DNA of 64,000 nt, taken from IMG/VR virus record IMGVR_UViG_3300021518_000005, positions 1-64,000 of that record; one strand, 5' to 3'. The position numbers and the translations under genes are program-made. This stretch comes from a virus. Of the stretch, positions 4,628 to 42,497 are shown one piece after another. Position 1 is the stretch's first letter. Each line of letters begins with the position of its first letter. The notes beneath the pieces are model-generated. The model was not told the DNA's origin. It ran no database searches and saw only the letters and a program-made list of their open reading frames with translations.

Positions 4628-5848
4628 TTGGCACAACGTAGTATGTTTTGGACAAGCAACGGTACTGGTGATGGAAGTGCTTATACACAAGCCCAAACCG
4701 TTGAATTCTTTCGCACGATTCTATCACCAGAAAATAACTTCTCTGGTGTCTTGCCGAATACTTTGAACAAGCTAACACCTTCGGCATCAGGCTTGAATGT
4801 CACCATCCTGAGCGGTGCAGCGATTGTCTATGGCTTTTGGTTCCATAGTGATGCAAACGAGGTTATCGCGGTACCACAGCCGACTATTGGCACGACCGGC
4901 CATCGTATTGTGGTGCGTGTGAATTGGAGCACACAGCAAGCACGGCTTACTTTACTTTCATCCTCGAATGGTGTCAGTGCTATTCCTGCTGCGGTGAGTA
5001 CGCCCGGCACCACGTATGATCTTACCATTGCAACACTCACGATTGCCACGGGCGGCGTGATTACACTTACTGATGCCCGCACGTATGCCACGTTCAGCAC
5101 GAATCATGTCAGGCGTACTGGCGATGTAATGACTGGCTCGCTCACCATTGATCGTACTAACTCAGTGGCAACCCAAGGCGATGAATTGGTTATCAATTCT
5201 GATCTGCCAGACATCCATCTCATCGATGCGGATGCTGCATCGAATGAAAAACGATGGGTGTTCTCCGTAAATAGTGGCGATTTCTCGATTGCAACACGCA
5301 CCGACGCCAATGCAGCAGGTGCAACGGCGATGGATGTTGTGCGTAATGGCACCGCAATTACAGAAGTCGATTTTCCCACCGGCGGTACTCACCTTAAATC
5401 TGGCGGCAACACGGTCTGGCACGCAGGTAATGACGGTGCTGGTAGCGGGCTAGATGCTGATACACTCGATGGATTGCAGGCAAGTCAACTATGGCGCATT
5501 GGGCAGCGCCAAGGCGGAAATGCATCAGATTTTACGGTAGCAGGGTCTACAAATTACACGTTTACTGGCTTGCGCCCACAGTTTGGTATTCTCTCCTATA
5601 CAGGCTCATTAAATCCTAGCGCCTATCCATCCGTTACTTTCCCATCTGCTTTTACTTCTAAGCCGCTTGTGATTATTACGTTGTTCGCGCCTGACTTGCC
5701 AACATTCGATCTATCTTTAAGCCTCTTCTCGGTGTCGGCGTCGGGTTTCACAGCACAAATCAAGTACCAAGGCGATGGTGTTGGGGGTACGATAACGAGT
5801 AGCGAGCCTGTATACATCGAATGGCTGGCGCTTGGGGTGATGGCATGA
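4628..5848 (+). CDS. Tail fibre or tip structural protein
   Basis: About 406 residues. The N-terminal 130 residues resemble fibre attachment domains (NNFSGVLPNTLNKLTPSASGLNVTILSG, then a VRVNWSTQQARLTLL stretch). The middle has the phage fibre signature LKSGGNTVWHAGNDG followed by LDADTLDGLQAS, as found in trimeric side tail fibres. The C terminus is a beta-rich tip that probably binds the host. The start is uncertain: a GTG at 4619 is only 1 base from GGAG (4614-4617), while the TTG at 4628 sits 10 bases from it, as does the TTG start of the amidase gene. TTG 4628 is therefore preferred. Confidence 0.75.
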   Translation: MAQRSMFWTSNGTGDGSAYTQAQTVEFFRTILSPENNFSGVLPNTLNKLTPSASGLNVTILSGAAIVYGFWFHSDANEVIAVPQPTIGTTGHRIVVRVNWSTQQARLTLLSSSNGVSAIPAAVSTPGTTYDLTIATLTIATGGVITLTDARTYATFSTNHVRRTGDVMTGSLTIDRTNSVATQGDELVINSDLPDIHLIDADAASNEKRWVFSVNSGDFSIATRTDANAAGATAMDVVRNGTAITEVDFPTGGTHLKSGGNTVWHAGNDGAGSGLDADTLDGLQASQLWRIGQRQGGNASDFTVAGSTNYTFTGLRPQFGILSYTGSLNPSAYPSVTFPSAFTSKPLVIITLFAPDLPTFDLSLSLFSVSASGFTAQIKYQGDGVGGTITSSEPVYIEWLALGVMA

Positions 5849-5854
5849 GATGTC

Positions 5855-5883
5855 TTGACAACGTTATAGGAATGAAGTATATT
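5855..5883 (+). promoter_or_regulatory. Strong sigma70-type promoter inside the tail operon
   Basis: TTGACA (5855-5860), 17-bp spacer, TATATT (5878-5883). It lies in the 76-base gap before the small secreted protein and lacks the palindrome seen at the twelve early promoters. It should therefore be read by host RNA polymerase even when the early regulon is silent. Confidence 0.8.
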
Positions 5884-5924
5884 TTGTTATGGAATTGTGC
5901 CAAAGGTATCCATAAAGGAGTTAC

Positions 5925-6167
5925 ATGAAAGTTCTAGTCGCGATCATGGTAGTGCTGGTATTGGGGACTACGCATCAATCTGTTCAGGAACAACCCCCCC
6001 CTTGCGAATTGCCATGTAATTCGCCCATCAGCACACCAATTGCCAGTACCCCTGTCACACGGGAAACACCACCAGCGCGCCCAACAAGTAGTGCGCCAGT
6101 GCCCAAGCTTACAAACACGCCCGATCCCGAAGTCCCATATTATATGTATTTGCCCATCATCCGATAG
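5925..6167 (+). CDS. Small secreted Pro/Thr-rich protein (moron)
   Basis: 80 residues. The N terminus is a signal peptide (MKVLVAIMVVLVLGTTH). The rest is Pro/Thr/Ser-rich with two cysteines (CELPC), and it ends in YYMYLPIIR. That ending resembles the YLPL(V/I) tail seen on many secreted Chloroflexota proteins, which is the main clue to the host. The Shine-Dalgarno AAAGGAG is 5 bases before the ATG, and the gene has its own consensus promoter at 5855. A cargo gene with a private promoter inside the tail operon is the classic moron arrangement, so expression in the lysogen and a role at the cell surface are likely. The specific function is unknown. Confidence 0.75.
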   Translation: MKVLVAIMVVLVLGTTHQSVQEQPPPCELPCNSPISTPIASTPVTRETPPARPTSSAPVPKLTNTPDPEVPYYMYLPIIR

Positions 6168-6181
6168 GATTGTGATGCCTT

Positions 6182-7258
6182 CTGTCATACTCCGAGTATG
6201 TTCTAATCCTCCGCAATAGTGCCGGTGCCAAGAAGGGCCTCATTGACAATTATCTGAGCATGCAATACAGCATGACGGTCAATGAGCCGGGCCTACTTGA
6301 ATTTAACGTTCTTGGCACACATTCCCTATTGTCTGGCTTGCAATATGGTGACTATATCGAGGTTCGTAGGCGTAATCGCGCCCACGGCCTCGATTGGTAT
6401 ACCGAATTCTATGCACTCTTTCAAAACATTGAATACCGCGCTAAACCGTATGATGTAGCTAAGATAACATGCCCTGGTATTTTACACCTTCTTACACATC
6501 GAACCGTATTGTATCCAAAATACATTGCTAATCTGTCTGCGTTTGATGTGGTAAAAGGCGAAACGGTGATGAAGCGCATTGTCAATTTTAACGCGGGCGC
6601 TTCAGCCACGACGGGTAATGGGCGACTACGCAACGGTGCTATCAGTACATTCAGTGTTGAAACTGATTTAGCGCGTGGCAACACCATTGATTACGAATGT
6701 GCATACAAGAATGTATTGAGCGCCGTCCAAGAAGTAGCTGTACTTGCTGGTGCTGATTTCAACATTGTTTCTACTACGCCTGGACAATGGCAATTTCGGT
6801 ATTATCCTGGACAACTAGGAACTGATCGTACCAGCACAGTATTATTTTCATTGGAACGCGATAATATCATTAATCCCGTGTTGACGGTTGATCGCTCAAC
6901 GCTTGCAACGGTTGCGGTTGCGGTTGGCGAAGGCGTTGGTTCAGATCGTATTAGTCGCGTTGAGACATCAAGCGAATTTCCTGGCATTGACATTGAACTA
7001 TATGTGGATGCGGGCGACAGGAATACGCAAACATCTTTACAAAACAAAGCCAAATCTGCGCTTGATACTACCAAGACATCCACGACGTTACAATTCAAGC
7101 CTCGGCAAGTACCATCCTCCATATACGGTGTGCATTATAAGCTAGGCGATAAAGTGAAAGCACGATATAAAGGCTTTACCATTACACCTAAAGTACAATC
7201 CATTACGGTGCGAATCAGTGAGAATGGTGAAGAAACGATAGATGGTGAGATCTACTAA
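6182..7258 (+). CDS. Gp37-like siphovirus tail protein, probable CTG start
   Basis: Related to the Siphovirus ReqiPepy6 Gp37-like family, a tail tip component. The conserved core DNYLSMQYSMTVNEPGLLEF straddles the first ATG at 6260. The family N terminus (EYVLILRNSAGAKKGLI) is encoded upstream in the same frame, which is open back to base 6176 but has no ATG, GTG or TTG. The best start is CTG 6182, 12 bases after AGGA. An ATG at 6175 is one base out of frame and would need a +1 shift. The moron directly upstream may have displaced the original start. The stop overlaps the next ATG by 1 base. Confidence 0.72.
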   Translation: MSYSEYVLILRNSAGAKKGLIDNYLSMQYSMTVNEPGLLEFNVLGTHSLLSGLQYGDYIEVRRRNRAHGLDWYTEFYALFQNIEYRAKPYDVAKITCPGILHLLTHRTVLYPKYIANLSAFDVVKGETVMKRIVNFNAGASATTGNGRLRNGAISTFSVETDLARGNTIDYECAYKNVLSAVQEVAVLAGADFNIVSTTPGQWQFRYYPGQLGTDRTSTVLFSLERDNIINPVLTVDRSTLATVAVAVGEGVGSDRISRVETSSEFPGIDIELYVDAGDRNTQTSLQNKAKSALDTTKTSTTLQFKPRQVPSSIYGVHYKLGDKVKARYKGFTITPKVQSITVRISENGEETIDGEIY

Positions 7259-8417: not shown

Positions 8418-9889
8418 GCGATCCAATTATTATTACAGATGAAGAACAGGGGAGCATTACCGTTGTCTCTGCTGCCATCACACTGAACACTGGATCAGGC
8501 GGTGGTACTGGCCCTGTTGGGCCGCAAGGCCCGCAAGGTGTACCAGGCCCTAAAGGGGATAAGGGGGATACTGGTAATGTTGGCCCCCAAGGGGTACAGG
8601 GTATCCAAGGCAATGTAGGACTAACAGGGCCTCAAGGCGCGCAAGGTCTTAAAGGTGATACTGGTGATATTGGCCCACAAGGGCCTGTTGGAGCACAAGG
8701 TATTCAGGGTCTTAAAGGTGACACGGGCGATACAGGCGCTCAAGGGCCACAAGGCATACCAGGCCCACAGGGGTTGAAGGGTGACACGGGCGCATCGGGT
8801 GCAATCGGCCCTCAAGGATTAAAGGGTGACACGGGCGATATTGGGCCACAAGGTATACAGGGCGATATTGGCCCTCAAGGTATACCAGGGCCTCAAGGAG
8901 TCAAGGGGGATACCGGCGATCCAGGCCCGCAAGGCCCTGCTGGCTCAACAGGCCCACAAGGTGATACCGGCCCACAAGGTCTACAGGGAGTTCAGGGTCT
9001 TAAAGGTGATACGGGTGATGTAGGCCCTGCTGGTTCACAGGGGCCGCAGGGATTGCAAGGCCCGCAAGGCCCTGCTGGTACCACGAACTACAACGACCTA
9101 ACGAATAAGCCCGATCTCTCGATTTACTCGCAGATCGGGCATACACATAATGCCGATGCCATTACCACAGGTGTTCTGGGCGTTGATCGATTGCCTTTTC
9201 GCGGGCCATCCGCTTCCCGTATTTATGTGTTTGATCACTTCATGGCAGGTGTTAACTCTGGTGATCTTGGCTGGAATATTCTTCTTTCTGGTACTGGCGC
9301 TACTGGCTCAACAGCTGTGTTTACAGACTACAATGCCACAAACAAAGTTATCGGGGCGATGGGCGTGCGAACAGGTACCGCAGCGCCTGTTACGCGCTCA
9401 GGCGCTGCGCTTCGTGCCAATAGTCCTGGTGTAGATAATATTCCGCTAGCTTTTGGTGCGCTCGACATGACATGGCGCTGTGCGGTATCAGCATTATCCA
9501 CATCGGCAGAAGAGTATTTTGCTGCGTTTGGCCTCTATGATGTTGTACATCTTTCAAACACTGATGCAACCGATGGATTGTATTTCATCTACAATCGAGC
9601 GAGTCATGGAGATTTTTGGGTATGCTCCGTAGCGGATAATGGTACCGTTGTCAACACAGTTACATCTGTTGCAGTCAATGCGAATTTTCGCACATTCCGT
9701 ATTGTAGCAAATGCAACTTGGACATCTATTCAATTTTATATTGATGGTACTCTGGTGCATACACAAACAAGTGGTATTCCGGGAAATGCCCGCAATAGTT
9801 ATCTTGGCATGAAGGTGCAAAAAACGGTTGGTACAGGCCAGCGCGATCTCTATGCTGATTATATGGAATTCGTGTATGATATTACATGA
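8414..9889 (+). CDS. Collagen-like fibre protein with C-terminal lectin-like domain
   Basis: 491 residues. After about 33 residues there are roughly 60 uninterrupted Gly-X-Y triplets (to about residue 226), mostly GPQG, GLKGDTGD and GIQG, which form a collagen triple helix as in many phage fibres. A linker NYNDLTNKPDLSIYSQIGHTH follows, a common phage fibre joint. The C-terminal 240 residues (FDHFMAGVNSGDLGWNILLSG to YADYMEFVYDIT) read as a laminin-G/concanavalin-like beta sandwich likely to bind host sugars. It overlaps both neighbours by 4 bases. Confidence 0.85.
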   Translation: MSDPIIITDEEQGSITVVSAAITLNTGSGGGTGPVGPQGPQGVPGPKGDKGDTGNVGPQGVQGIQGNVGLTGPQGAQGLKGDTGDIGPQGPVGAQGIQGLKGDTGDTGAQGPQGIPGPQGLKGDTGASGAIGPQGLKGDTGDIGPQGIQGDIGPQGIPGPQGVKGDTGDPGPQGPAGSTGPQGDTGPQGLQGVQGLKGDTGDVGPAGSQGPQGLQGPQGPAGTTNYNDLTNKPDLSIYSQIGHTHNADAITTGVLGVDRLPFRGPSASRIYVFDHFMAGVNSGDLGWNILLSGTGATGSTAVFTDYNATNKVIGAMGVRTGTAAPVTRSGAALRANSPGVDNIPLAFGALDMTWRCAVSALSTSAEEYFAAFGLYDVVHLSNTDATDGLYFIYNRASHGDFWVCSVADNGTVVNTVTSVAVNANFRTFRIVANATWTSIQFYIDGTLVHTQTSGIPGNARNSYLGMKVQKTVGTGQRDLYADYMEFVYDIT

Positions 9890-28091: not shown

Positions 28092-28332
28092 CATTGCCAC
28101 CGTCTGAGACAAACGAGTGCAAGCAAAAGACCGTAACACCCCCTGCGTAAATCCACACCTACCCCTGTGCGTTTCCACACCCCCCCTGTGGATTCCCGCA
28201 CCCGCATTGCAAAGCCGTAAATCGCCAATTACACGGTATCATACGTATCTCTTCATGCCGTGAGAATGGCAGTATTCCGCGTCTCAATGCGAAGTGTGGA
28301 AACGCGCACCACCCCTGTGGAAATACACAGGT

Positions 28333-28393
28333 ATTTCGACCATTTCGTCGGAAATTTCGACCATTTCGTCGGAAATTTCGACCATTTCGTCGG
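28333..28393. repeat. Three 21-bp iterons
   Basis: Unit ATTTCGACCATTTCGTCGG plus AA spacer, starting at 28333, 28354 and 28375, identical in all three copies. The period of 21 places each on the same face of the helix, as expected for initiator or partition-protein binding sites. Confidence 0.9.
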
Positions 28394-28451
28394 TAGAAGT
28401 AATCGGGGTTTGCGCCATTTCAAAGCCGTAAAATGCCACAAAATTTTAAGG

Positions 28452-28490
28452 GAATCATATACATGAATCATATACATGAATCATATACAT
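28452..28490. repeat. Three 13-bp repeats, set 1
   Basis: GAATCATATACAT at 28452, 28465 and 28478, perfect tandem copies. AT-rich. Confidence 0.92.
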
Positions 28491-28495
28491 TTTTT

Positions 28496-28534
28496 GCATT
28501 TTTTTTGCGCATTTTTTTTGCGCATTTTTTTTGC
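28496..28534. repeat. Three 13-bp T-rich repeats, set 2
   Basis: GCATTTTTTTTGC at 28496, 28509 and 28522, perfect tandem copies, 5 bases after set 1. Likely the easily melted element (DUE) of the origin. Confidence 0.92.
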
Positions 28535-28837
28535 GGCACTAGCGCGCTGCGCTTGCTCGCTCACTGCGTTCGCGCTGCCCCAATTTCGCTTCGCTCTTTT
28601 TCCAGGCATTCCGGACATGCCTAGACAGGGTAATAGAGAGACTGGCAGAACGTACTTCCTTTATTTGGACGAAACGCATTTCATCCATGGGAAGAATAAA
28701 AACGATCCTCAACCTATTTGATGTACTACGCGCTTAATCTCTTACCATCTACGACAGGATCACCGGAACAGTATTCTATGTGTGTTTGTGAAATGTTTCA
28801 CCTCATAAACGTGGTGGAATTGAGCGGAATGCATAAT

Positions 28838-28865: not shown

Positions 28866-28903
28866 AGCAACATATAGTCAGTTGAAAAACAGAGGGGGTG
28901 ATG

Positions 28904-29089
28904 ATGGAAGAGAAATTGAAAACGGGTGAAGCGGCTCGATTGATCGGAGTCCACATTCAAACGATACGACGATGGGCAGCTGCGGGACTGATTAAGACAT
29001 TGACATTACCAAGCGGGCAACGGTTGGTCTATCGTTCGGAGGTGGAACGCATTGTAGGAAAACGTGAGCATGTGGAGAAGGCATTGTGA
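28904..29089 (+). CDS. MerR/excisionase-type HTH DNA-binding protein
   Basis: 61 residues. TGEAARLIGVHIQTIRRWAAAGLIKTLTLPSGQRLVYRSEVERIV is the helix-turn-helix of the AlpA/Xis/MerR-like (HTH_17) group. AGAGGGGG lies 5 bases before ATG 28904 (ATG 28901 is also possible). It overlaps the initiator-like gene by 4 bases and follows the repeat arrays, so it may bind the iterons or regulate the initiator. Confidence 0.75.
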   Translation: MEEKLKTGEAARLIGVHIQTIRRWAAAGLIKTLTLPSGQRLVYRSEVERIVGKREHVEKAL

Positions 29090-29874
29090 ACGCCATTCGA
29101 CAAGACTATGCACAAATTGAACGCATTATGCTCCTTACGCGCAAGTTAGGGCCGGTTGAGAAAATTGTATGGAATGCCATGCGGTTATACGATTGGAGTG
29201 TGGGAAGTGTACATCCTTCGCTTGAAACGCTTTGTGAGGATATTAATGCCTGCAATCCTGACGATCTGGTTGATATTGAAACGGTTCGCCGAGCGACCAA
29301 GAAACTTGAAAAAGTAGGACTTATCACACAAGAAACGATCAAGCGCAGCGGCCAGCGATCATTTACGCGCTACATCATGAACGATATTCCCGCAAGTATC
29401 ACAGGCGGCGAACCTATTCCGCTGGTGTATCGAGAAGGTGGATGGTCTAATACCTCAAATAAACAAAAGCAGGAGCAACAGCAACCACGAGCGCAAGAGG
29501 CATCGCAGCAGAGCGTTACTGCTGTACCTGCCGCAAAAGAAGACTCGCTATGTGTAAGAACGTTCCGTGAAAGCTTGCAAGACATCGGTCTACCACGTCA
29601 TCTACATGACGATCAGAAGCGCCTCATTGACTCGGTAGAACCCGACGAAGTCCTGGCGTACACTATTCCACAGATCTGCGATGCATATGACGTTACTGAT
29701 GTGGATGTATTCATCGATCTGTATGTCGGTGGCAAGGATGCAGTAGATTGGTTTCTGGCTACTCGTTCGCAAAGAAAAAGCCCGGATGCTGCCAACATCC
29801 AGGCTTCCAAGTACTACCACGCTGCACAAGCACAAACACAAGCACACTCTTTAGACGATGAGCCTCCATTTTAA
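29086..29874 (+). CDS. Replication-initiator-like winged-helix protein
   Basis: 262 residues from GTG 29086. The N-terminal 110 residues (LTRKLGPVEKIVWNAMRLYD, SLETLCEDIN, ETVRRATKKLEKVGLITQETIKRSG) form a winged helix like those of phage and plasmid initiators. A Gln-rich linker (KQKQEQQQPRAQEA) leads to a C-terminal helical domain and the ending DDEPPF. It follows the iterons and shares the HTH gene's operon, so origin binding and helicase loading are inferred. Another DnaD/loader-like protein lies at 57699. Confidence 0.68.
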   Translation: MNAIRQDYAQIERIMLLTRKLGPVEKIVWNAMRLYDWSVGSVHPSLETLCEDINACNPDDLVDIETVRRATKKLEKVGLITQETIKRSGQRSFTRYIMNDIPASITGGEPIPLVYREGGWSNTSNKQKQEQQQPRAQEASQQSVTAVPAAKEDSLCVRTFRESLQDIGLPRHLHDDQKRLIDSVEPDEVLAYTIPQICDAYDVTDVDVFIDLYVGGKDAVDWFLATRSQRKSPDAANIQASKYYHAAQAQTQAHSLDDEPPF

Positions 29875-31007: not shown

Positions 31008-31150
31008 GTGATCATGTCCTTGGTATCGACTACACCGCGTTTACCATTAGCCGCGTCGAGAGCGACGACAAGGAGGTAACGTATCATCGCATGGGATCGC
31101 GCATGCGGTATACGGCGAATGTACACAAAGGGCATTTTGACTATGCTTGA
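30995..31150 (+). CDS. Small protein, unknown
   Basis: 51 residues from ATG 30995 (GGAGG 7 bases upstream): MYAVGDHVLGIDYTAFTISR..., ending VHKGHFDYA. Overlaps the previous gene. A 27-codon frame (31144-31227) overlaps its stop and may couple translation to the next gene. Confidence 0.5.
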   Translation: MYAVGDHVLGIDYTAFTISRVESDDKEVTYHRMGSRMRYTANVHKGHFDYA

Positions 31151-31218
31151 GCAGATTCGGCATCCCACAGCTAGGATGCACTATAACTGGATACAAGCAC
31201 TTTGGGGGGATGTGCAGC

Positions 31219-31737
31219 GTGCCTAGCACGCCAACGCACGACAGAATAACGATTATCGCCGGGGCGCTCCTTGCTCCGGCGTATTCGTTTGCGCAGCAGC
31301 ATGCAGGCAATGAACATGCTGCAACATTGGGCCTTATCGCTGGCACCAGTTGTATTGTTTCAGGACTATGGTTCAGTCCTGATCTTGACCTTGACAGCTG
31401 GATACATCATCGTTGGGGCGCGCTAGCAGCACTATGGAAGCCATACAAACAGCTTGTACCGCATCGCCACTGGGTAAGTCATGGCTTTGTTATCGGCGCG
31501 CTGCTCCGGCTTGTGTATATTGCGTGCATCCTGTTGATTGTAGGGTGCCTGTACAGCCTTGCTGTAACACGAGGTCTTGCATTGGCGGGGATGTGGGTAC
31601 ACGAAATTGCAGCCGCCGCTGTACGGCACTCTGATGCGTTTTCCGCTGCGCTTTTTGGCTTCATTATTGGCAGTGACGCACATATTGCAGCCGACGTTAT
31701 TAGTTCCTCGTGGAAGCGCCGTAAGCGATTGACATGA
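31219..31737 (+). CDS. DUF2227-like membrane metal-binding protein
   Basis: 172 residues from GTG 31219, with GGGGGGA 8 bases upstream. Motifs THDRIT, FSPDLDLDS, HHRWG, WKPYKQLVPHRHWVSHG and DAHIAADV follow the DUF2227 family of integral membrane proteins with conserved His/Asp expected to bind metal (related to YdjM-type phosphatase-like proteins). About four transmembrane helices. Role in the phage is unknown. Confidence 0.72.
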   Translation: MPSTPTHDRITIIAGALLAPAYSFAQQHAGNEHAATLGLIAGTSCIVSGLWFSPDLDLDSWIHHRWGALAALWKPYKQLVPHRHWVSHGFVIGALLRLVYIACILLIVGCLYSLAVTRGLALAGMWVHEIAAAAVRHSDAFSAALFGFIIGSDAHIAADVISSSWKRRKRLT

Positions 31738-31791: not shown

Positions 31792-32790
31792 ATGGCAGCA
31801 TCGCAATCGAGTCAAGCACTCAGTCTGTTCACGTTCGACACAAGCATTTTATCGACGGCAGAAGCACAGCACGCGCATAAGATCGGACTATTGACAGCCA
31901 AAAGTGAGGCCCTACACAGCGCACAGCGCCTTGTAGGGGTGGGTCGGCCTTTGCTCTTTGGCGTCCTTCTCGTAAGTTTTGTCCATCTCTGGCACACAGT
32001 AGCATCAATTAAGCCAGGAGAAGTGCAGGATTTAGAACTGTGGGGATGGATCTATCACGTTGCAGCTGCGCTTCTTATCCTCTCGATTGATGCGACTGCT
32101 GCCTATCTGGTATCGGTTCGTGGTACAGCTCGTTATGCTGGTGACACGCGCCCTAATCATGTGGTCATCTTTTTTTACGTGCTTACAGGCATGCTCAATT
32201 TGCTGTTTGTGATGCGCTACAGTCCAGGACTGCCCGATATGGTTGGGGATTTTTTGCCGTTCCTGTCATTTGCAACAGGATTGTTACTTGCTCCACTTAT
32301 TCCGGTGAGCGTGTGGGCCATCGAGCACGCACGGCAAACAGCGGATGCGGCTCGACTTGCGTTACTCGTTGAAGTGACAACATTGAAAGGCATCATCCAA
32401 GCATCGAAAAACAAGGAGAAAGAGCAACACGAGATGAGTGTAAACGAACTTGAGGCATTGCGCGCTGAATTGCAGGCTGCACGGGAAAATGCAGCGCAAC
32501 TGAATCGTGAGAAGCAGCAGATTATGATCGAGTTACAGGCAGAGCATAATCGTGTTGTAGCGCAACAGCAACACGCACCGCTGATTACAACACGCTTACC
32601 AGTGGAGCGCGGGAAGCCATCCAAGCGCGATGCCGTGATTGCACTATTCGAGCGATACAATCATCAAGGCATATGGGTTGATGGATGGAGCGCAAAGCGC
32701 ATCGCCGATGAAGTATCGACCGATGCGGAGCCGGTAACAGCGCAGCGTGTCAGTGAGTACATTAGCAAATATAAGAAAGTGAGCGGATAA
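31792..32790 (+). CDS. Membrane protein with coiled coil and C-terminal DNA-binding-like domain
   Basis: 332 residues. Four transmembrane segments lie between residues 50 and 185. A coiled coil follows (roughly 205-255, NELEALRAELQAARENAAQL), then a C-terminal winged-helix-like part (KRDAVIALFERYNHQGIWVDG, SAKRIADEVSTDAEPVTAQRVSEYI). A membrane anchor joined to a predicted DNA-binding tail could tether phage DNA to the membrane. It heads a three-gene membrane operon that ends at the terminator at 33633. Confidence 0.6.
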   Translation: MAASQSSQALSLFTFDTSILSTAEAQHAHKIGLLTAKSEALHSAQRLVGVGRPLLFGVLLVSFVHLWHTVASIKPGEVQDLELWGWIYHVAAALLILSIDATAAYLVSVRGTARYAGDTRPNHVVIFFYVLTGMLNLLFVMRYSPGLPDMVGDFLPFLSFATGLLLAPLIPVSVWAIEHARQTADAARLALLVEVTTLKGIIQASKNKEKEQHEMSVNELEALRAELQAARENAAQLNREKQQIMIELQAEHNRVVAQQQHAPLITTRLPVERGKPSKRDAVIALFERYNHQGIWVDGWSAKRIADEVSTDAEPVTAQRVSEYISKYKKVSG

Positions 32791-32990
32791 TGAGACATAT
32801 CGTATTCTGGTTTGTTGTCGTGACATTGTGCCTCATCACACATGTGTTTGGTATCGAATTAACACATACATATCTCTTAGGTGATCGGCAGGATATGTAC
32901 ATGCTGGCAGTTACGATATGGTTTACGCTTTTTGTGTGTATCATTGTACCGTTGTATGTATGGAGTGCTCATGAACGCACCAGAGAATAA
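32790..32990 (+). CDS. Small two-pass membrane protein
   Basis: 66 residues with two hydrophobic segments (IVFWFVVVTLCLITHVFGI and LAVTIWFTLFVCIIVPLYVW). Overlaps both neighbours. Confidence 0.55.
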   Translation: MRHIVFWFVVVTLCLITHVFGIELTHTYLLGDRQDMYMLAVTIWFTLFVCIIVPLYVWSAHERTRE

Positions 32991-33609
32991 GGTTCAAACG
33001 CCCCCACATGGTTCAGGATCGCCAGTCATGCATGGCCCACGGGTTGCGCCTGTACGGGGCCACCAAGGGCAGCAGGCAACAAAACAGGCAGTAAAGCAGC
33101 AACCTGCTACCGCAGCGCCGCCTATACCGAATATGGATATTGCGAAGTGGAGCGGCGCGGTATTCTGGCTGTTTGGATTGACGCTCACGACCGCATTCAT
33201 ACACGGTCTTGCATTCGATATTCTTGTTAATCAATGGTATCGCTGGCCTGTAGAGATTGTGGTATCACTTGCACTTCAAGTGGCACTGACAAAGTTGGAG
33301 AGCCCGATCTGGCGCGGCTATGTGATTCACTTGCCCGGATTACTAGGGCTTGGCATTGACGTGTATATCAATCTGGCTGGTGCTTTTGCAATTGCCGATG
33401 GCATTGCAACATCTGAATCAACACGAGTGCTAGCGGGCTGGTACGGCTGGAATATGAATGAAATCAAGGCTGGAAACGGCTTTATGCTCACCACGGTATG
33501 TATTGCGGTGTTGATCGCCGCTCTGCCCGAGCTGTTATGGACACTGGATAAACGAGTAGCACAGTTTAAGCATGCGGTTCGTGGAAGGATGTATCAGAAG
33601 GAGGACTAA
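32971..33609 (+). CDS. Membrane protein with Pro/Gln-rich N terminus
   Basis: 212 residues from ATG 32971 (GGAG 5 bases upstream). The first 55 residues are a disordered cytoplasmic stretch (PPHGSGSPVMHGPRVAPV). Four hydrophobic segments follow (FWLFGLTLTTAFIHGLAF, WPVEIVVSLALQVALT, GLLGLGIDVYINLAGAFAIAD, MLTTVCIAVLIAALPELLW). Function unknown. Confidence 0.55.
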   Translation: MNAPENKVQTPPHGSGSPVMHGPRVAPVRGHQGQQATKQAVKQQPATAAPPIPNMDIAKWSGAVFWLFGLTLTTAFIHGLAFDILVNQWYRWPVEIVVSLALQVALTKLESPIWRGYVIHLPGLLGLGIDVYINLAGAFAIADGIATSESTRVLAGWYGWNMNEIKAGNGFMLTTVCIAVLIAALPELLWTLDKRVAQFKHAVRGRMYQKED

Positions 33610-33745: not shown

Positions 33746-35431
33746 ATGGGCCTAGAAGGATTTGTTGTTATATTTTTCTTTGTACTGTTTATTGTGCTGG
33801 TTATTCGCTCGCTTTTGCGGCCTGAGACCGCACACAGCGAATACAGCCGTGTAACGCCTACTACAATGCCTGTAGAGCGCGTTGACGTGGCTGAATATGG
33901 CAATCCAGCACTAGCCATCCTTGCATGGCTTTGGGCTGTATTTCGTATCGGTCTGTTCCATCTACAGCGGCGTCGGGAGAGGCCAGCACCAGCGATTACA
34001 AGCCAGGAATCTGTGTATGTTGTACAAGAGCGTGAATCTATGCCACGAGAGCGTGAGGCTGCATCAGAAATCCGGCAGCCGCAGGAAGTAAAGCAACCAG
34101 CACATCAGGCATCAGAAGGCCGTGTAAAGGACGTAGATACACGCGCAAACACCAAGGATCGCATGGCGCAGTTGCCAGCACATGCGCCCGATCCTGTTGA
34201 TGACACGCGGGATCGCTTGAATATTCCTGTGCTGTTTGACGGCACACAGTATCTCTATCATCGCATGGGCAGCGGCCACAAAGCTGTTCTTGGCACCACA
34301 AATGGAGGGAAGGGTAACTTTCTTCGCTACTATGCGCTTATGTCGCTCCTAGCAGGGCCTGAGAACATGCGGCTTGTCGTGTTCGATGCAAAGGGCGGTG
34401 CTGATTACTGGTGGATTCATCAGATCGATCATGCCGAACTGTATTTTACAGGCCCTGAAATACTCGATGAAGAAAAACCGATTGATGCACTTGAGGAAGG
34501 TCTCAAGGTGTATGTGCGTTTGATGTTGGAGCGCGGCCAAGCATTACAAGCCGCGCACGTAGAGAAAATTGATCTGTATAATGAAAAAGTAAGAAATGGA
34601 AGTGTAAATGGTTTTGAATGGCCGTACATTGTGGTTATTGTTGATGAAATTGCAGACTTCAGTAAAGAGGCAAAGAGTCTTGTCTCGACACTGACACGCA
34701 TGGGCCGCGCTACTGGTTTTGATATTCTCGTAGCAACGCAGCATGCTACTGTTGAGGCGATGAGCACACAGATCAGTCGCAACCTGACAAACCGTTTTGC
34801 TTTCCGCCTGAACAGCTCCGAGGGTACAGCCGTCGCCCTAGCGCGCACCAGCAATGATTACGGCAAGTATGAACCGAGCGTAATTGATCGGCCTGGTGTC
34901 GCCGTGTGGCGCGGCATGGGCGGCAATGAACAAATGGGTCTTGTTCCATTTGTTGATCCGCTGATGGATGGCTTGCTTGCACAGTTGACAAGCAAGTATG
35001 GCAAGTCAAGTCAAGCAAGTATGGCAAGTCAAGTACTTGCACAAGCAAGTGCAAAAACAAGTGTCGTGGCAAGTCGAAAACAAGTACTTGACTTGCACGG
35101 GCAAGGCGAAGCAAGTGACACACTTGACGACGATGCAAGTGCATACTTGTCTGAAGTACTTACCATACAAACGACTGATGCAAGTCAAGCAATCAGTCAA
35201 GGCAAGTCAAGGCAAGCTCCAGGCAAGTCAGAAGGAAATACAAAAACAAGTCGATGGCAAGGACTTGTTAACCAAGAAACACTTGCACAAGCAAGAGAGA
35301 CTGTGCAAGAGATGGGTGATAAGGTAGGCGTCGTGGAACTGGCTCAGGCATTGTATGGTAAAAGCACGGGTATCTATTTTTATGCAGCACAAGAACTTCT
35401 TGCATTGTTGGAAGGAGAAAAATTAACTTAA
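33746..35431 (+). CDS. FtsK/TraB-like membrane DNA translocase
   Basis: 561 residues. Two N-terminal transmembrane segments (about 5-24 and 53-71), a charged linker, then an FtsK/SpoIIIE-type ATPase motor: Walker A GTTNGGKGN (about 183-191), DAKGGADYWW, Walker B VVIVDEIADF with Asp300-Glu301, and ATQHATVEAMSTQISRNLTNRF. The C-terminal 45 residues (ARETVQEMGDKVGVVELAQAL, FYAAQELLALLEG) resemble the gamma winged helix by which FtsK and actinobacterial TraB recognise short DNA repeats. Between motor and wing (about residues 415-515) the DNA is packed with CAAGT/ACTTG, giving many Ala-Ser and Lys-Ser pairs. It pumps double-stranded DNA; the biological role (partition or transfer) is inferred. Confidence 0.82.
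   Translation: MGLEGFVVIFFFVLFIVLVIRSLLRPETAHSEYSRVTPTTMPVERVDVAEYGNPALAILAWLWAVFRIGLFHLQRRRERPAPAITSQESVYVVQERESMPREREAASEIRQPQEVKQPAHQASEGRVKDVDTRANTKDRMAQLPAHAPDPVDDTRDRLNIPVLFDGTQYLYHRMGSGHKAVLGTTNGGKGNFLRYYALMSLLAGPENMRLVVFDAKGGADYWWIHQIDHAELYFTGPEILDEEKPIDALEEGLKVYVRLMLERGQALQAAHVEKIDLYNEKVRNGSVNGFEWPYIVVIVDEIADFSKEAKSLVSTLTRMGRATGFDILVATQHATVEAMSTQISRNLTNRFAFRLNSSEGTAVALARTSNDYGKYEPSVIDRPGVAVWRGMGGNEQMGLVPFVDPLMDGLLAQLTSKYGKSSQASMASQVLAQASAKTSVVASRKQVLDLHGQGEASDTLDDDASAYLSEVLTIQTTDASQAISQGKSRQAPGKSEGNTKTSRWQGLVNQETLAQARETVQEMGDKVGVVELAQALYGKSTGIYFYAAQELLALLEGEKLT
34993..35285. repeat. CAAGT/ACTTG pentamer cluster inside translocase gene
   Basis: I count 16 CAAGT and 7 ACTTG in about 300 bases, against less than 1 expected by chance. 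They run on through coding sequence, most often as GCAAGT with AGT serine codons. A second cluster lies at 35696-35930. See findings. Confidence 0.88.
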
Positions 35432-35634
35432 GTTTTTTCTGGAATGCTCAAAAAGGCCCTGAAATAGCCCATTTTGGGCGACTTAAGCCCCGCGAGATGA
35501 AACTTAAGTTTTTCTTTCGGGGCTTTCTTTTGGCTTTGTAGTCATTAAAATCGAGGCTTAAGTTTTTTATTAGGCGACTTAAGTTTTCCATGCGCTTTTC
35601 AAAAACTTAAGTCGCTTGTGGGCAAAAACTTAAG
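35427..35634. repeat. Seven CTTAAG palindromes
   Basis: CTTAAG at 35427, 35482, 35503, 35557, 35578, 35606 and 35629, usually extended to ACTTAAGTTTTT. The first contains the stop codon of the translocase gene. Two intervals are exactly 21 bases. The intergenic region between the translocase and the HNH gene holds no other gene. Confidence 0.88.
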
Positions 35635-35695
35635 TTTTTGCAGACCATTTCAATCGGGCATAATCGTGTGCAGCAGACAAGAATCTCATGCTTGT

Positions 35696-35930
35696 ACTTG
35701 ACTTGGCAAAAAACAAGTAGGGCAATGACTTGCACACTTGATACGCAATGCAAGTCAAACATTCTACTGGAACACTTGACTTGTTTTTCATCGAGCAATT
35801 CAGGCAAGTCAACTACTCATAAAGGCAAGTACAAAAACAAGTGAGGTGGCAAGTCCGGGCAAATCAAGTAGACAAGTCAAGCCTTGTTTCTTGACTTGCC
35901 AAAACAAGTACTTGACTTGTCTACTTGTCT
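35696..35930. repeat. Second CAAGT/ACTTG cluster
   Basis: I count 9 CAAGT and 10 ACTTG in about 235 bases downstream of the translocase gene, ending just inside the HNH gene's 3' end. Both orientations are mixed. Confidence 0.88.
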
Positions 35931-36291: not shown

Positions 36292-36321
36292 ATCTTACCA
36301 TATCGGTAAGATACTTGTCTA
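36292..36321 (-). promoter_or_regulatory. Early promoter with operator palindrome (HNH gene)
   Basis: - strand TAGACA, 18-bp spacer, TAAGAT; exact consensus CTTACCGATATGGTAAG. Divergent from the promoter at 36382. Confidence 0.82.
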
Positions 36322-36381
36322 GTGACAAAATACTCACATGATCAACCAAAACTCTTTACACTTGGCATTTCCTGAAGAAGT

Positions 36382-36409
36382 TTGACATTTCTTACCGCTA
36401 TGGTATACT
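36382..36409 (+). promoter_or_regulatory. Rightward operator-type promoter of the structured RNA
   Basis: TTGACA (36382-36387), 16-bp spacer, TATACT (36404-36409); half palindrome CTTACCGCTATGGTA. Start of transcription expected near 36416, at the beginning of the non-coding RNA. Confidence 0.85.
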
Positions 36410-36477
36410 GTGGGTGAGCCGAACGCAAGACTAGTCCCGAGGGTGCAGCGAGGTCATACGTTGATTAGTAGGCCCAT

Positions 36478-36567
36478 GGGAGCGCAGTAGGTTTCGATAG
36501 GGCGCGATGAGCACGAAAGCGCACAGCTCCGCTCTAGACGCGAGTGCAACTCTCGCCGCTTCCACCA
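36478..36567 (+). ncRNA. tmRNA-like tRNA domain without mRNA part
   Basis: The 5' end GGGAGCG-CAGTA-GGTTTCGATAGGG matches the tmRNA 5' pattern (acceptor strand, 5 bases, GGxxTCGAxxGG). The 3' end has a T arm GCGAG-TGCAACT-CTCGC followed by CGCTTCC and ACCA, close to the bacterial tmRNA 3' end. The 7-bp acceptor stem pairs fully with a G3.U70 wobble and A73, the alanyl-tRNA synthetase identity set. The two halves are only about 35 bases apart instead of about 300: no tag frame and no pseudoknots. There is no convincing anticodon arm. An aberrant tRNA-Ala is the alternative. Confidence 0.7.
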
Positions 36568-37036
36568 GTTAGGGCATACTAGGCATGTCTAGGTTAACCG
36601 CTTTGAATGGCACCGTGCCTCTCTGTCATTCAACCTGTATGGAGTAAGCAGGAACAAAGGGATGTAAACGCCTTGCTGTAGGTTCCTTGTGGGCCATGAG
36701 TAGAACGGATAAGACCGCCGTTGGAATGACGGCGCGGGATCGGTAATCCGCACTCGTAATCTCTGCCGATCTGCTGACAAGTGGAGAACTTGTCACTGTA
36801 CAGGTAATGATCGGTGCAGCGCGGTAAAAAAACAGCTATGTGTGCATGTGGGTGAGGCTGTCGGTGTTGGGCCGTAGGGAGTACTATATAACGATAGCGT
36901 TGTATAACCTGATCGTATCCGTCGCTAATCCAACTAGGCGAGGCGCATGCACACACCGCGCATTCACGGCGACACCTGCCAAGCATTCTAGATACTGCAA
37001 GTGGTGCGACACGTAGCGGAGAGACGCTACTCTTGC

Positions 37037-37126
37037 GGGCTTAAAGCGTAGTAGGTAAACTGCGTGCCGACTGATCAGCGGCCCTGTGTAAGACACGGGT
37101 AGAGGGTTCGAGTCCTTCAAAGCCCA
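37037..37126 (+). tRNA. tRNA-like gene with long variable arm, apparent GAU anticodon
   Basis: Acceptor GGGCTTA/AAAGCCC (last pair mismatched), D arm around AGTAGGTAAA, anticodon arm GCCGA-CTGATCA-GCGGC (apex anticodon GAT, U33 present), a 12-base stem variable arm CCTGTG/CACGGG, and a canonical T arm GAGGG-TTCGAGT-CCTTC. A long variable arm belongs to Leu, Ser or Tyr tRNAs, so an Ile anticodon is unexpected. CCA is not encoded. It directly follows the last hairpin of the structured RNA. Confidence 0.65.
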
Positions 37127-37169
37127 ACAATATTGTTATTATAAAAATCAAAGGAGTGACTGTATACGT

Positions 37170-41312: not shown

Positions 41313-41392
41313 CAATTGCTTCGACCTGAACACAGTATAAATCAAACAACTTGATTGTTGAATGATAAATACCTGATATTTAGGTGATAATT
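41313..41392 (-). promoter_or_regulatory. Duplicated promoter-operator, copy B
   Basis: Same organisation as copy A: TTCAAC, 17 bp, TATACT, with the perfect dyad AATCAA-ACAAC-TTGATT. It overlaps the integrase stop codon and drives 41290 leftward. Confidence 0.8.
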
Positions 41393-42497
41393 ACTCAGAT
41401 GTGTCCTGCAACTTCCTAGCCACATCCTCCAATGCGGCGCGCTCATCAGCGCTGTACGAATGGATGTACACGCGCTCCGTGATGCTGGTAGTGCTATGGC
41501 CGAGTACATCACGCGCCACTGTCGAGGCATACCCGCTTTGGGCGATAAGCGATGCTACCGCATGGCGAAGATCATGTAATCGGATCGATTGCGGCAGCCC
41601 GATTCGCTTCAAGTCGGCCTTGAACGACCGCCAGAGATTATGCGGGTTGTACGGTGTGCCAACTTCAGATGGAAATACAAGTTGATGATCTTTCCATCCT
41701 GGTGCATCGCGCTCCTCATTTTGCACAGCCCTATGCACCTCAAGTGTTTGTACAAGCCACGGCGCAAGCGGAAGCGTTCTAACACCGCTCTCGGTTTTTG
41801 CATCAGCAATATGCAGCGTGCCAGCTTGCATATCAACATCGGCCCACTTCAGCGCGATTAATTCGCCACGTCGAAGGCCGAGTGATGCGCCAATGACATA
41901 GAGTGCATAGCGCCGTGTACCGCGTGCGCCATCGAGTAGTTGTCGGATATGCTCAATGGATACCGGCTGCACTTTGTACTTTCTTGGTTTTGGCACATCA
42001 ACATGTTCAGCCACGTTCCGTTGCACCATTTCGAGACGTACACCGTCGTTGAGTGCTCGACTCAAAACACCATGCGCGTATTCGATGGTACGAGTACTCA
42101 AGAGTGCGTCACGTTTCTTAGAACGCTTGTCACGCAGTTCTGAGAGCCAATGCTGTATATCTTGTGGCCGGAGCTTTACAAGTTTGATATGGCCGATATG
42201 CGGCTCGATATGCAGTCGAGACATATCACGGTAGCTTTCGTAGGTTCGCGCCTTGCCTGGTTTGACCGTATGCTCTAGCCAATACGCCATGTACTGCGTG
42301 ACTGTCATTTTATTGTCGATTGGCTCAGAGCCACGATTAAGTTCAGCCAAGATATTCGCTTGCCAGGTTGCAACTTCCTTGCGTGTCTTGCCGTATTTCC
42401 ACTTGCGTTTCCCATTGCCAAGTGATACAGCTGCGTACCATGTCCCGTCTTTGCGCTGCCCAATAGTGCCTTCATTTTGACCGCGTTTCTTAGGCAT
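41391..42497 (-). CDS. int: Tyrosine-type site-specific integrase
   Basis: 368 residues. N-terminal arm-binding domain (RKDGTWYAAVSLGNGKRKWKYGKTRKEV), core-binding SAM-like domain (VTQYMAYWLEHTVKPGKARTY) and catalytic domain with Arg209 (GLRRGEL), His308 and Arg311 (HDLRH), His334 (LGHSTTS) and the nucleophile Tyr344. It should recombine the attP tRNA-Gly core with the host gene. Its ribosome binding site GGAGG is inside a 28-bp palindrome just upstream (42502-42529). Confidence 0.93.
   Translation of the reverse strand: MPKKRGQNEGTIGQRKDGTWYAAVSLGNGKRKWKYGKTRKEVATWQANILAELNRGSEPIDNKMTVTQYMAYWLEHTVKPGKARTYESYRDMSRLHIEPHIGHIKLVKLRPQDIQHWLSELRDKRSKKRDALLSTRTIEYAHGVLSRALNDGVRLEMVQRNVAEHVDVPKPRKYKVQPVSIEHIRQLLDGARGTRRYALYVIGASLGLRRGELIALKWADVDMQAGTLHIADAKTESGVRTLPLAPWLVQTLEVHRAVQNEERDAPGWKDHQLVFPSEVGTPYNPHNLWRSFKADLKRIGLPQSIRLHDLRHAVASLIAQSGYASTVARDVLGHSTTSITERVYIHSYSADERAALEDVARKLQDTSE

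What the first reader, a model, noticed from the sequence alone, without database searches (positions are those of the whole stretch)
34993..35930. DNA translocase whose own gene carries its presumed recognition repeats
About 42 CAAGT/ACTTG pentamers in two clusters (23 in about 300 bases inside the gene, 19 in about 235 bases beyond it), far above the roughly 1 per 500 bases expected. The protein is FtsK/TraB-like with a C-terminal winged-helix-like tail. In actinobacterial conjugative plasmids TraB pumps double-stranded DNA after its gamma domain binds 8-bp repeats at clt, sometimes inside traB. The parallel suggests a phage-borne double-strand transfer or partition system with a pentamer code. 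This is the best candidate for an undescribed system.
Basis: partly seen in the sequence, partly recalled or inferred. Interest (0 to 1): 0.88.

Follow-up and report, generated by a model that had tools for sequence, protein, structure and literature searches.

The report
Phage FtsK with clt-like repeat array
A phage carries a gene for a DNA-pumping motor whose own 3' end, and the DNA just beyond it, hold 42 copies of one short word, closely resembling the start-here signal that plasmids of filamentous bacteria use to pump double-stranded DNA between cells; similar word arrays sit next to the same motor gene in several unrelated phages.

Summary
In detail: 23 CAAGT/ACTTG sites at 34993-35285 inside an FtsK/SpoIIIE-type gene (33746-35431) and 19 at 35696-35927 beyond it, about 30 times the rate elsewhere in the 83-kb phage contig. 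Synonymous recoding does not explain it (23 seen; mean 3.1, maximum 10 of 20,000). The sites use all three frames and both strands. The unit is longer than the pentamer: 41 of 42 fit the 8-mer DDCAAGTV, against 115 of 217 elsewhere. Best reading: a plasmid-like TraB/clt-type module in a temperate phage (candidate iteron origin, Rep, membrane-coil-HTH protein resembling SpdB2 in layout only, FtsK, array at the FtsK 3' end). The position equals the documented clt of plasmid pWTY27. Among 34 FtsK-bearing viral contigs, the nine strongest word clusters lie within 4 kb of FtsK in eight cases, each with its own word (expected 1.1, P about 5e-6). Binding, transfer and host are unproven. New variant of a known kind.

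The parts
33746..35431 (+). FtsK/SpoIIIE-type DNA translocase, 561 aa: two N-terminal TM-like helices (about 4-23, 54-76), disordered region in place of the FtsK alpha domain, RecA-like motor (about 155-418) with Walker A GTTNGGKG and Walker B VVIVDE, Q/S/A-rich linker, C-terminal HTH-like tail
34993..35285 (.). Array block 1: 23 CAAGT/ACTTG sites (8-mer DDCAAGTV) written into the coding sequence of the linker
35246..35428 (+). Codes for the C-terminal three-helix, winged-helix-like tail of the FtsK
   Evidence: weak Pfam winged-helix hits; model helices 510-527, 529-538, 542-556 at low confidence; not canonical gamma
35425..35641 (.). Intergenic block of seven CTTAAG palindromes, mostly extended to ACTTAAGT with flanking A/T runs; strong hairpin potential
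   Evidence: ssDNA fold z -4.4
35696..35927 (.). Array block 2: 19 CAAGT/ACTTG sites downstream of the gene
31792..32790 (+). Membrane protein: four TM-like helices, long coiled coil (169-260), C-terminal HTH (278-331); same layout as SpdB2/DUF2637 of Streptomyces plasmids but no detectable sequence homology
32881..33609 (+). Membrane protein of unknown family directly upstream of FtsK
   Evidence: no Pfam hit
28140..28535 (.). Candidate plasmid-type origin: three 21-bp iterons (28333-28395), TGTGGAAA/TTTCCACA-type inverted repeats, two sets of three 13-bp repeats
28898..29089 (+). MerR/HTH_17 excisionase- or Cop-like protein
29086..29874 (+). Replication-initiator-like protein (HTH_36; PHROG replication initiation)
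41391..42497 (-). Tyrosine integrase

Best explanation
A temperate, probably plasmid-capable phage carries a module that works like the TraB/clt double-strand DNA transfer system of Streptomyces plasmids. A membrane-anchored FtsK-type motor is recruited to a dense cis-acting array of 8-bp sites (DDCAAGTV), written into the 3' part of its own gene and the DNA beyond, and from there pumps phage DNA across a septum or membrane, for spread between cells or compartments or for segregation of the extrachromosomal prophage. The most likely reader is the FtsK C-terminal helix-turn-helix, whose coding sequence directly follows the in-gene array; the next most likely is the HTH of the 31792-32790 membrane protein. 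Shown: array, DNA-level selection, 8-bp constraint, motor family, clt-like position, phage context, recurrence of arrays near FtsK in other phages. Inferred: binding, reader, loading, purpose.
For: Array excess over synonymous recoding and use of all frames and both strands; 8-mer constraint. Motor homology and fold, including a weak direct match to pWTY27 TraB with a shared GKG Walker A. The position equals the documented clt of pWTY27, and the same detector finds arrays at or just past the traB 3' end in pWTY27, S. anulatus, S. longwoodensis, S. zaomyceticus and pJV1 plasmids. In 34 FtsK-bearing viral contigs, 8 of the 9 strongest word clusters lie within 4 kb of FtsK (expected 1.1, P about 5e-6), each with its own word; seven of those eight contigs have tape measure or terminase genes. 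A plasmid-like Rep/iteron block lies upstream.
Against: No binding or transfer data. The FtsK tail is only a weak winged-helix match, modelled at low confidence, and unlike the canonical gamma. It falls far below the NCBIfam TraB model (28 bits against cut-off 800). In the eight comparison contigs the array is upstream, not at the FtsK 3' end. In one herellevirus-like contig the cluster lies by a ParM-type partition gene. No close relative of this FtsK was found in any collection, so conservation of this array could not be tested.
Confidence: 0.5

Rival explanations
1. The array is a centromere-like partition site for the extrachromosomal prophage, bound by an HTH protein, with FtsK as the segregating motor or a bystander; no cell-to-cell transfer is involved.
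For: Dense arrays without strand polarity resemble centromeres; in a herellevirus-like contig the cluster near FtsK lies by a ParM-type partition gene; a plasmid-like Rep block lies nearby.
Against: No ParA Walker motif in this contig or the eight comparison contigs; no partition NTPase recognised in the block; the arrays associate with FtsK across phages. This rival overlaps the best explanation if FtsK itself does the segregation.
Confidence: 0.25
2. The array is read by the SpdB2-like membrane protein (31792-32790), which tethers the phage DNA at the membrane, and FtsK acts on the tethered DNA without sequence specificity.
For: In actinophages and Streptomyces plasmids arrays lie inside the gene of a membrane-linker-HTH protein; words track that HTH and not the FtsK gamma.
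Against: Here the array is in the FtsK gene, not in 31792-32790; sequence homology of 31792-32790 to SpdB2 was not detected; pSVH1 SpdB2 is reported to bind DNA non-specifically (PMC4170104).
Confidence: 0.15
3. The array plus palindromes are a replication origin with iterons for the phage initiator.
For: Dense repeats, AT-rich palindromes and hairpin potential; Rep-like gene 6 kb away.
Against: A better iteron origin with AT-rich 13-mers lies directly upstream of the Rep gene at 28140-28535; the array abuts FtsK, as clt does.
Confidence: 0.06
4. A repeat expansion or low-complexity protein linker without function as DNA.
For: Short perfect tandem copies exist inside block 1 (23-bp unit x2 at 34989-35034).
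Against: All frames and both strands used; the same word occurs in non-coding block 2; constrained flanks in 41 of 42 sites; far above synonymous expectation.
Confidence: 0.04

Closest known systems
TraB/clt double-strand DNA transfer of Streptomyces conjugative plasmids (pSVH1, pWTY27, pJV1)
   Same: FtsK-type membrane-anchored motor with GKG Walker A; short repeats at the 3' end of the motor gene and downstream; 8-bp unit; neighbouring membrane-coil-HTH protein laid out like SpdB2; plasmid-type Rep and HTH genes
   Different: Lies in a tailed-phage genome; 42 sites instead of roughly 4-9; half of them inside the gene; no canonical gamma; distant sequence (about 21% over the motor core); transfer not shown
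FtsK/SpoIIIE with KOPS/SRS
   Same: Motor family; HTH-like tail after a linker
   Different: No strand polarity of the word along the genome, no alpha domain, sites concentrated in one 0.9-kb locus
Phage FtsK genes (PHROG 1358/3551; Bacillus herelleviruses, mycobacteriophages)
   Same: Phage-borne FtsK with a C-terminal winged-helix-like tail
   Different: No functional account or array found in the papers I could search; in the one herellevirus-like contig with a strong cluster it sits by a ParM-type gene
sps palindromes with SpdA (Streptomyces plasmids)
   Same: Repeated short palindromes in the transfer/stability region
   Different: Different sequence; no SpdA-like gene was tested for or recognised here
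TcpA of clostridial plasmid pCW3
   Same: FtsK-fold conjugation coupling protein, among the best structural matches
   Different: Part of a relaxase-type conjugation system (own knowledge)

Membership tests
FtsK/SpoIIIE motor family | FtsK_SpoIIIE ATPase domain | tested here: met
   PF01580 39.3 bits, cut-off 24; fold match to E. coli FtsK E 2.8e-14
TraB/clt system | Short repeat array at the 3' end of the motor gene and downstream | tested here: met
   same position as pWTY27 clt
TraB/clt system | C-terminal winged-helix domain | tested here: inconclusive
   Weak Pfam winged-helix hits, three helices at pLDDT about 55
TraB/clt system | Scores as plasmid TraB (NCBIfam NF041214) | tested here: not met
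   28.3 bits, cut-off 800
TraB/clt system | Accompanying SpdB2/DUF2637 homologue | tested here: inconclusive
   Layout matches; no sequence homology and no PF10935 hit
TraB/clt system | Motor binds the repeats and moves double-stranded DNA between cells | not testable with these tools
   Needs bench work
Chromosomal FtsK with KOPS | Polar words along the genome and canonical gamma domain | tested here: not met
   No polarity; hhalign to gamma profile probability 0.4%
ParABS partition | ParA-type ATPase | tested here: not met
   No KGG[VTS]GKT motif in the contig
ParM-type partition | Actin-like ATPase next to the array | not tested
   No such gene recognised in the block, but no ParM profile was searched
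Iteron replication origin | Array next to the Rep gene with AT-rich unwinding element | tested here: not met
   Such an element is at 28140-28535, not at the array

The most novel reading that the evidence does not exclude
Double-strand DNA transfer or spreading modules follow a rule: the array of binding sites is written inside the coding sequence of the linker just before the DNA-binding domain of the protein that reads it, and word and reader diverge together. Many tailed phages carry such FtsK/Spd modules and so can move their DNA between cells or compartments without a virion.
Probability: 0.3. Interest if true: 0.85.

Novelty: new variant of a known kind. Interest (0 to 1): 0.62.

Why it matters
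Phage FtsK genes are common but I know of no established role for them. Finding that the strongest short-word clusters of FtsK-bearing phages lie beside the FtsK gene, as clt does in conjugative plasmids, gives a testable function: site-directed pumping of phage double-stranded DNA. If true, some phages can spread or segregate without particles, which bears on filamentous and sporulating hosts and on how conjugative plasmids and phages exchange parts. The arrays inside spdB2 genes of classical Streptomyces plasmids, which I found no mention of in the papers I could search, suggest that a protein described as binding DNA non-specifically may have specific sites.

Tried and rejected
Single-protein scans for close relatives of this FtsK in IMG/VR and GTDB genomes found none, nor did the 23 contigs with related terminases, so the array could not be followed through close relatives. 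A host search with the transposase-like protein found nothing; relatives cannot be drawn for a virus record. The tape measure gave no relatives. Exact search for CAAGTCAAGCAAGT in IMG/VR gave many scattered single matches and no dense arrays. KOPS-like polarity was tested and rejected. ParA search was negative. Sequence comparison of 31792-32790 with DUF2637/SpdB2 proteins was negative, so only the layout is claimed. pIJ101 as a control gave no strong cluster, in keeping with its very small clt. PF04860 portal was found in only one of the compared contigs; tape measure and terminase were used instead. A raw comparison of FtsK loci with terminase loci showed only a modest excess of clusters, so I rely on the within-contig position test; its score threshold was chosen after looking, but the excess holds for k = 6-8 over a range of thresholds and is weak for k = 5.

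Full report
WHAT IS THERE. The window is the first 64 kb of an 83,227-bp virus record. A 126-bp overlap between its two ends suggests a nearly complete genome. It has a tape measure protein, a terminase (45% identical to Streptomyces phage terminases), a tyrosine integrase and a MerR-type excisionase-like protein, so it is a temperate tailed phage.

THE ARRAY. There are 42 CAAGT/ACTTG sites: 23 at 34993-35285 and 19 at 35696-35927. The remaining 217 sites of the contig are spread thinly. CAAGT gives the densest 300-base cluster of any 5-mer in the contig. Within the gene the word is used in all three frames on the coding strand and in two frames on the other. Resampling synonymous codons never gave more than 10 sites in 20,000 trials against 23. 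The same word continues in block 2, outside the gene. Flanking bases are constrained: 41 of 42 sites fit DDCAAGTV, against 115 of 217 outside (P 2e-9); part of this may come from overlapping or adjoining sites. Orientation is mixed (25+/17-). The gap between the blocks holds seven CTTAAG palindromes, most extended to ACTTAAGT with A/T runs, with strong hairpin potential.

THE GENE. 33746-35431 encodes a 561-residue FtsK/SpoIIIE-family protein (PF01580). The motor core is modelled with high confidence and matches FtsK and the conjugative coupling protein TcpA. It has two N-terminal membrane helices, no alpha domain, a Q/S/A-rich linker that carries the array, and a short helical tail with weak winged-helix matches. 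The tail is not the canonical gamma domain. Upstream lie a membrane protein (32881-33609) and a four-TM, coiled-coil, HTH protein (31792-32790). Further upstream are a Rep-like gene and a candidate iteron origin at 28140-28535. The block therefore looks like a plasmid replication-plus-transfer module inside a phage (inference from gene order).

IS IT GENERAL? I fetched whole or nearly whole contigs for 34 FtsK-bearing IMG/VR records and scored the densest 6-mer cluster against each contig's own rate. Nine contigs had a cluster above log10 P of 11. In eight of these it lay within 4 kb of FtsK, upstream of it, with words GACCCC, GCGGCA, CCGAAC, CACAGC, CGTTAC, GGGAAC, GGGTAA and GGTAAC; the expectation was 1.1 (P about 5e-6). 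The threshold was set after inspection, but the excess holds for k = 6-8 and for other thresholds; it is weak for k = 5. Seven of the eight have tape measure or terminase genes, and the eighth is a herellevirus-like contig with a ParM-type partition gene near its cluster. In at least four contigs (G025, G028, G040, G064) the array is inside the gene of a membrane-linker-HTH protein just upstream of FtsK. In G040 the word CCGAAC occurs 65 times in that gene, almost equally in the three frames (22/21/17 on the coding strand), against a synonymous maximum of 16.

CONTROLS ON KNOWN PLASMIDS. On Streptomyces plasmids the same detector recovers the documented pWTY27 clt (TGACACC, found as GTGTCA at 9805-9870, overlapping the traB 3' end) and the documented Rep iterons (TGGGAA; PMC3583192). 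It also finds arrays at or just past the traB 3' end in S. anulatus, S. longwoodensis, S. zaomyceticus and pJV1 plasmids. In addition it finds arrays inside the spdB2/DUF2637 gene: pJV1 GTGAGC (16, synonymous maximum 7-8), pWTY27 CGCGAA (16, maximum 6), S. anulatus CGTGAA (10, maximum 6), and likewise (not resampled) pSN22, S. zaomyceticus and S. alfalfae. I found no mention of these in-gene arrays in the papers I could search. The window's array has the clt position, at the 3' end of the motor gene.

WHO READS IT? In five actinophage-like contigs with five different words, the FtsK gamma domains are 59-87% identical but the membrane proteins' HTHs are only 8-28% identical, so in those the word tracks the latter. 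In the plasmids, related HTHs (GWSxGWVSxRR) go with related words. In both settings the array lies in the linker just before an HTH of the same gene. Applied to the window, this rule points to the FtsK tail, whose sequence is not the conserved gamma; the clt position points the same way. The alternative is the HTH of 31792-32790. This is inference.

FUNCTION. The most likely role is site-directed pumping of phage double-stranded DNA, either for spread between cells or compartments or for segregation of an extrachromosomal prophage. Sequence alone does not decide between these. A separate candidate replication origin nearby argues against the array being the origin. Lack of polarity and of canonical gamma argues against KOPS-type steering.

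VERDICT. TraB model scores are far below cut-off, SpdB2 homology was not detected, and binding is untested. Novelty: new variant of a known kind, with a wider pattern (arrays beside or inside FtsK/Spd genes of phages and plasmids) that deserves a census.

Noticed in passing
L370 666-1781 (pJV1), L371 5597-6694 (pWTY27), L372 around 5796-6278 (pSN22), L373, L374, L377: spdB2/DUF2637 genes of Streptomyces conjugative plasmids contain arrays of a short word (GTGAGC, CGCGAA, CGTGAG, CGTGAA, CGTTCA); in the three tested by synonymous resampling (pJV1, pWTY27, L374) they exceed expectation.
   Followed up: partly
window 28140-28535: Candidate plasmid-type origin: three 21-bp iterons, TGTGGAAA/TTTCCACA-type inverted repeats and two sets of three 13-bp repeats, upstream of Xis/Rep-like genes.
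   Followed up: partly
G055 (L292), about 50.3-51.9 kb: In a herellevirus-like contig the densest word cluster (GGGTAA) lies by a ParM-type partition gene (phrog_691), about 4 kb upstream of FtsK.
   Followed up: partly
window 19855, 27806, 57659 (- strand): A 19-bp motif TACCGATATGGTAAGATAC recurs at gene starts, in places read through as an N-terminal YRYGKI-like leader; possible phage promoter or operator.
   Followed up: no
window 36300-37130: Long non-coding stretch with a 90-base tRNA (called tRNA-Ile; weak tRNA-Sec model match) and a very weak tmRNA match.
   Followed up: partly
contig G000 positions 1-38 and last 126 bases: The contig starts with a 38-base hairpin; the sequence from base 14 repeats 126 bases of the contig end, suggesting an assembly artefact at the start and a circular or redundant genome.
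   Followed up: no
L376 2727-2800: An S. althioticus linear plasmid has seven AACTTG (CAAGTT) copies in 75 bases, containing the same pentamer as the window; probably coincidence.
   Followed up: no
window 31147-31737: DUF2227 metal-binding protein gene inside the plasmid-like block (PF09988, 126 bits); role there unknown.
   Followed up: no
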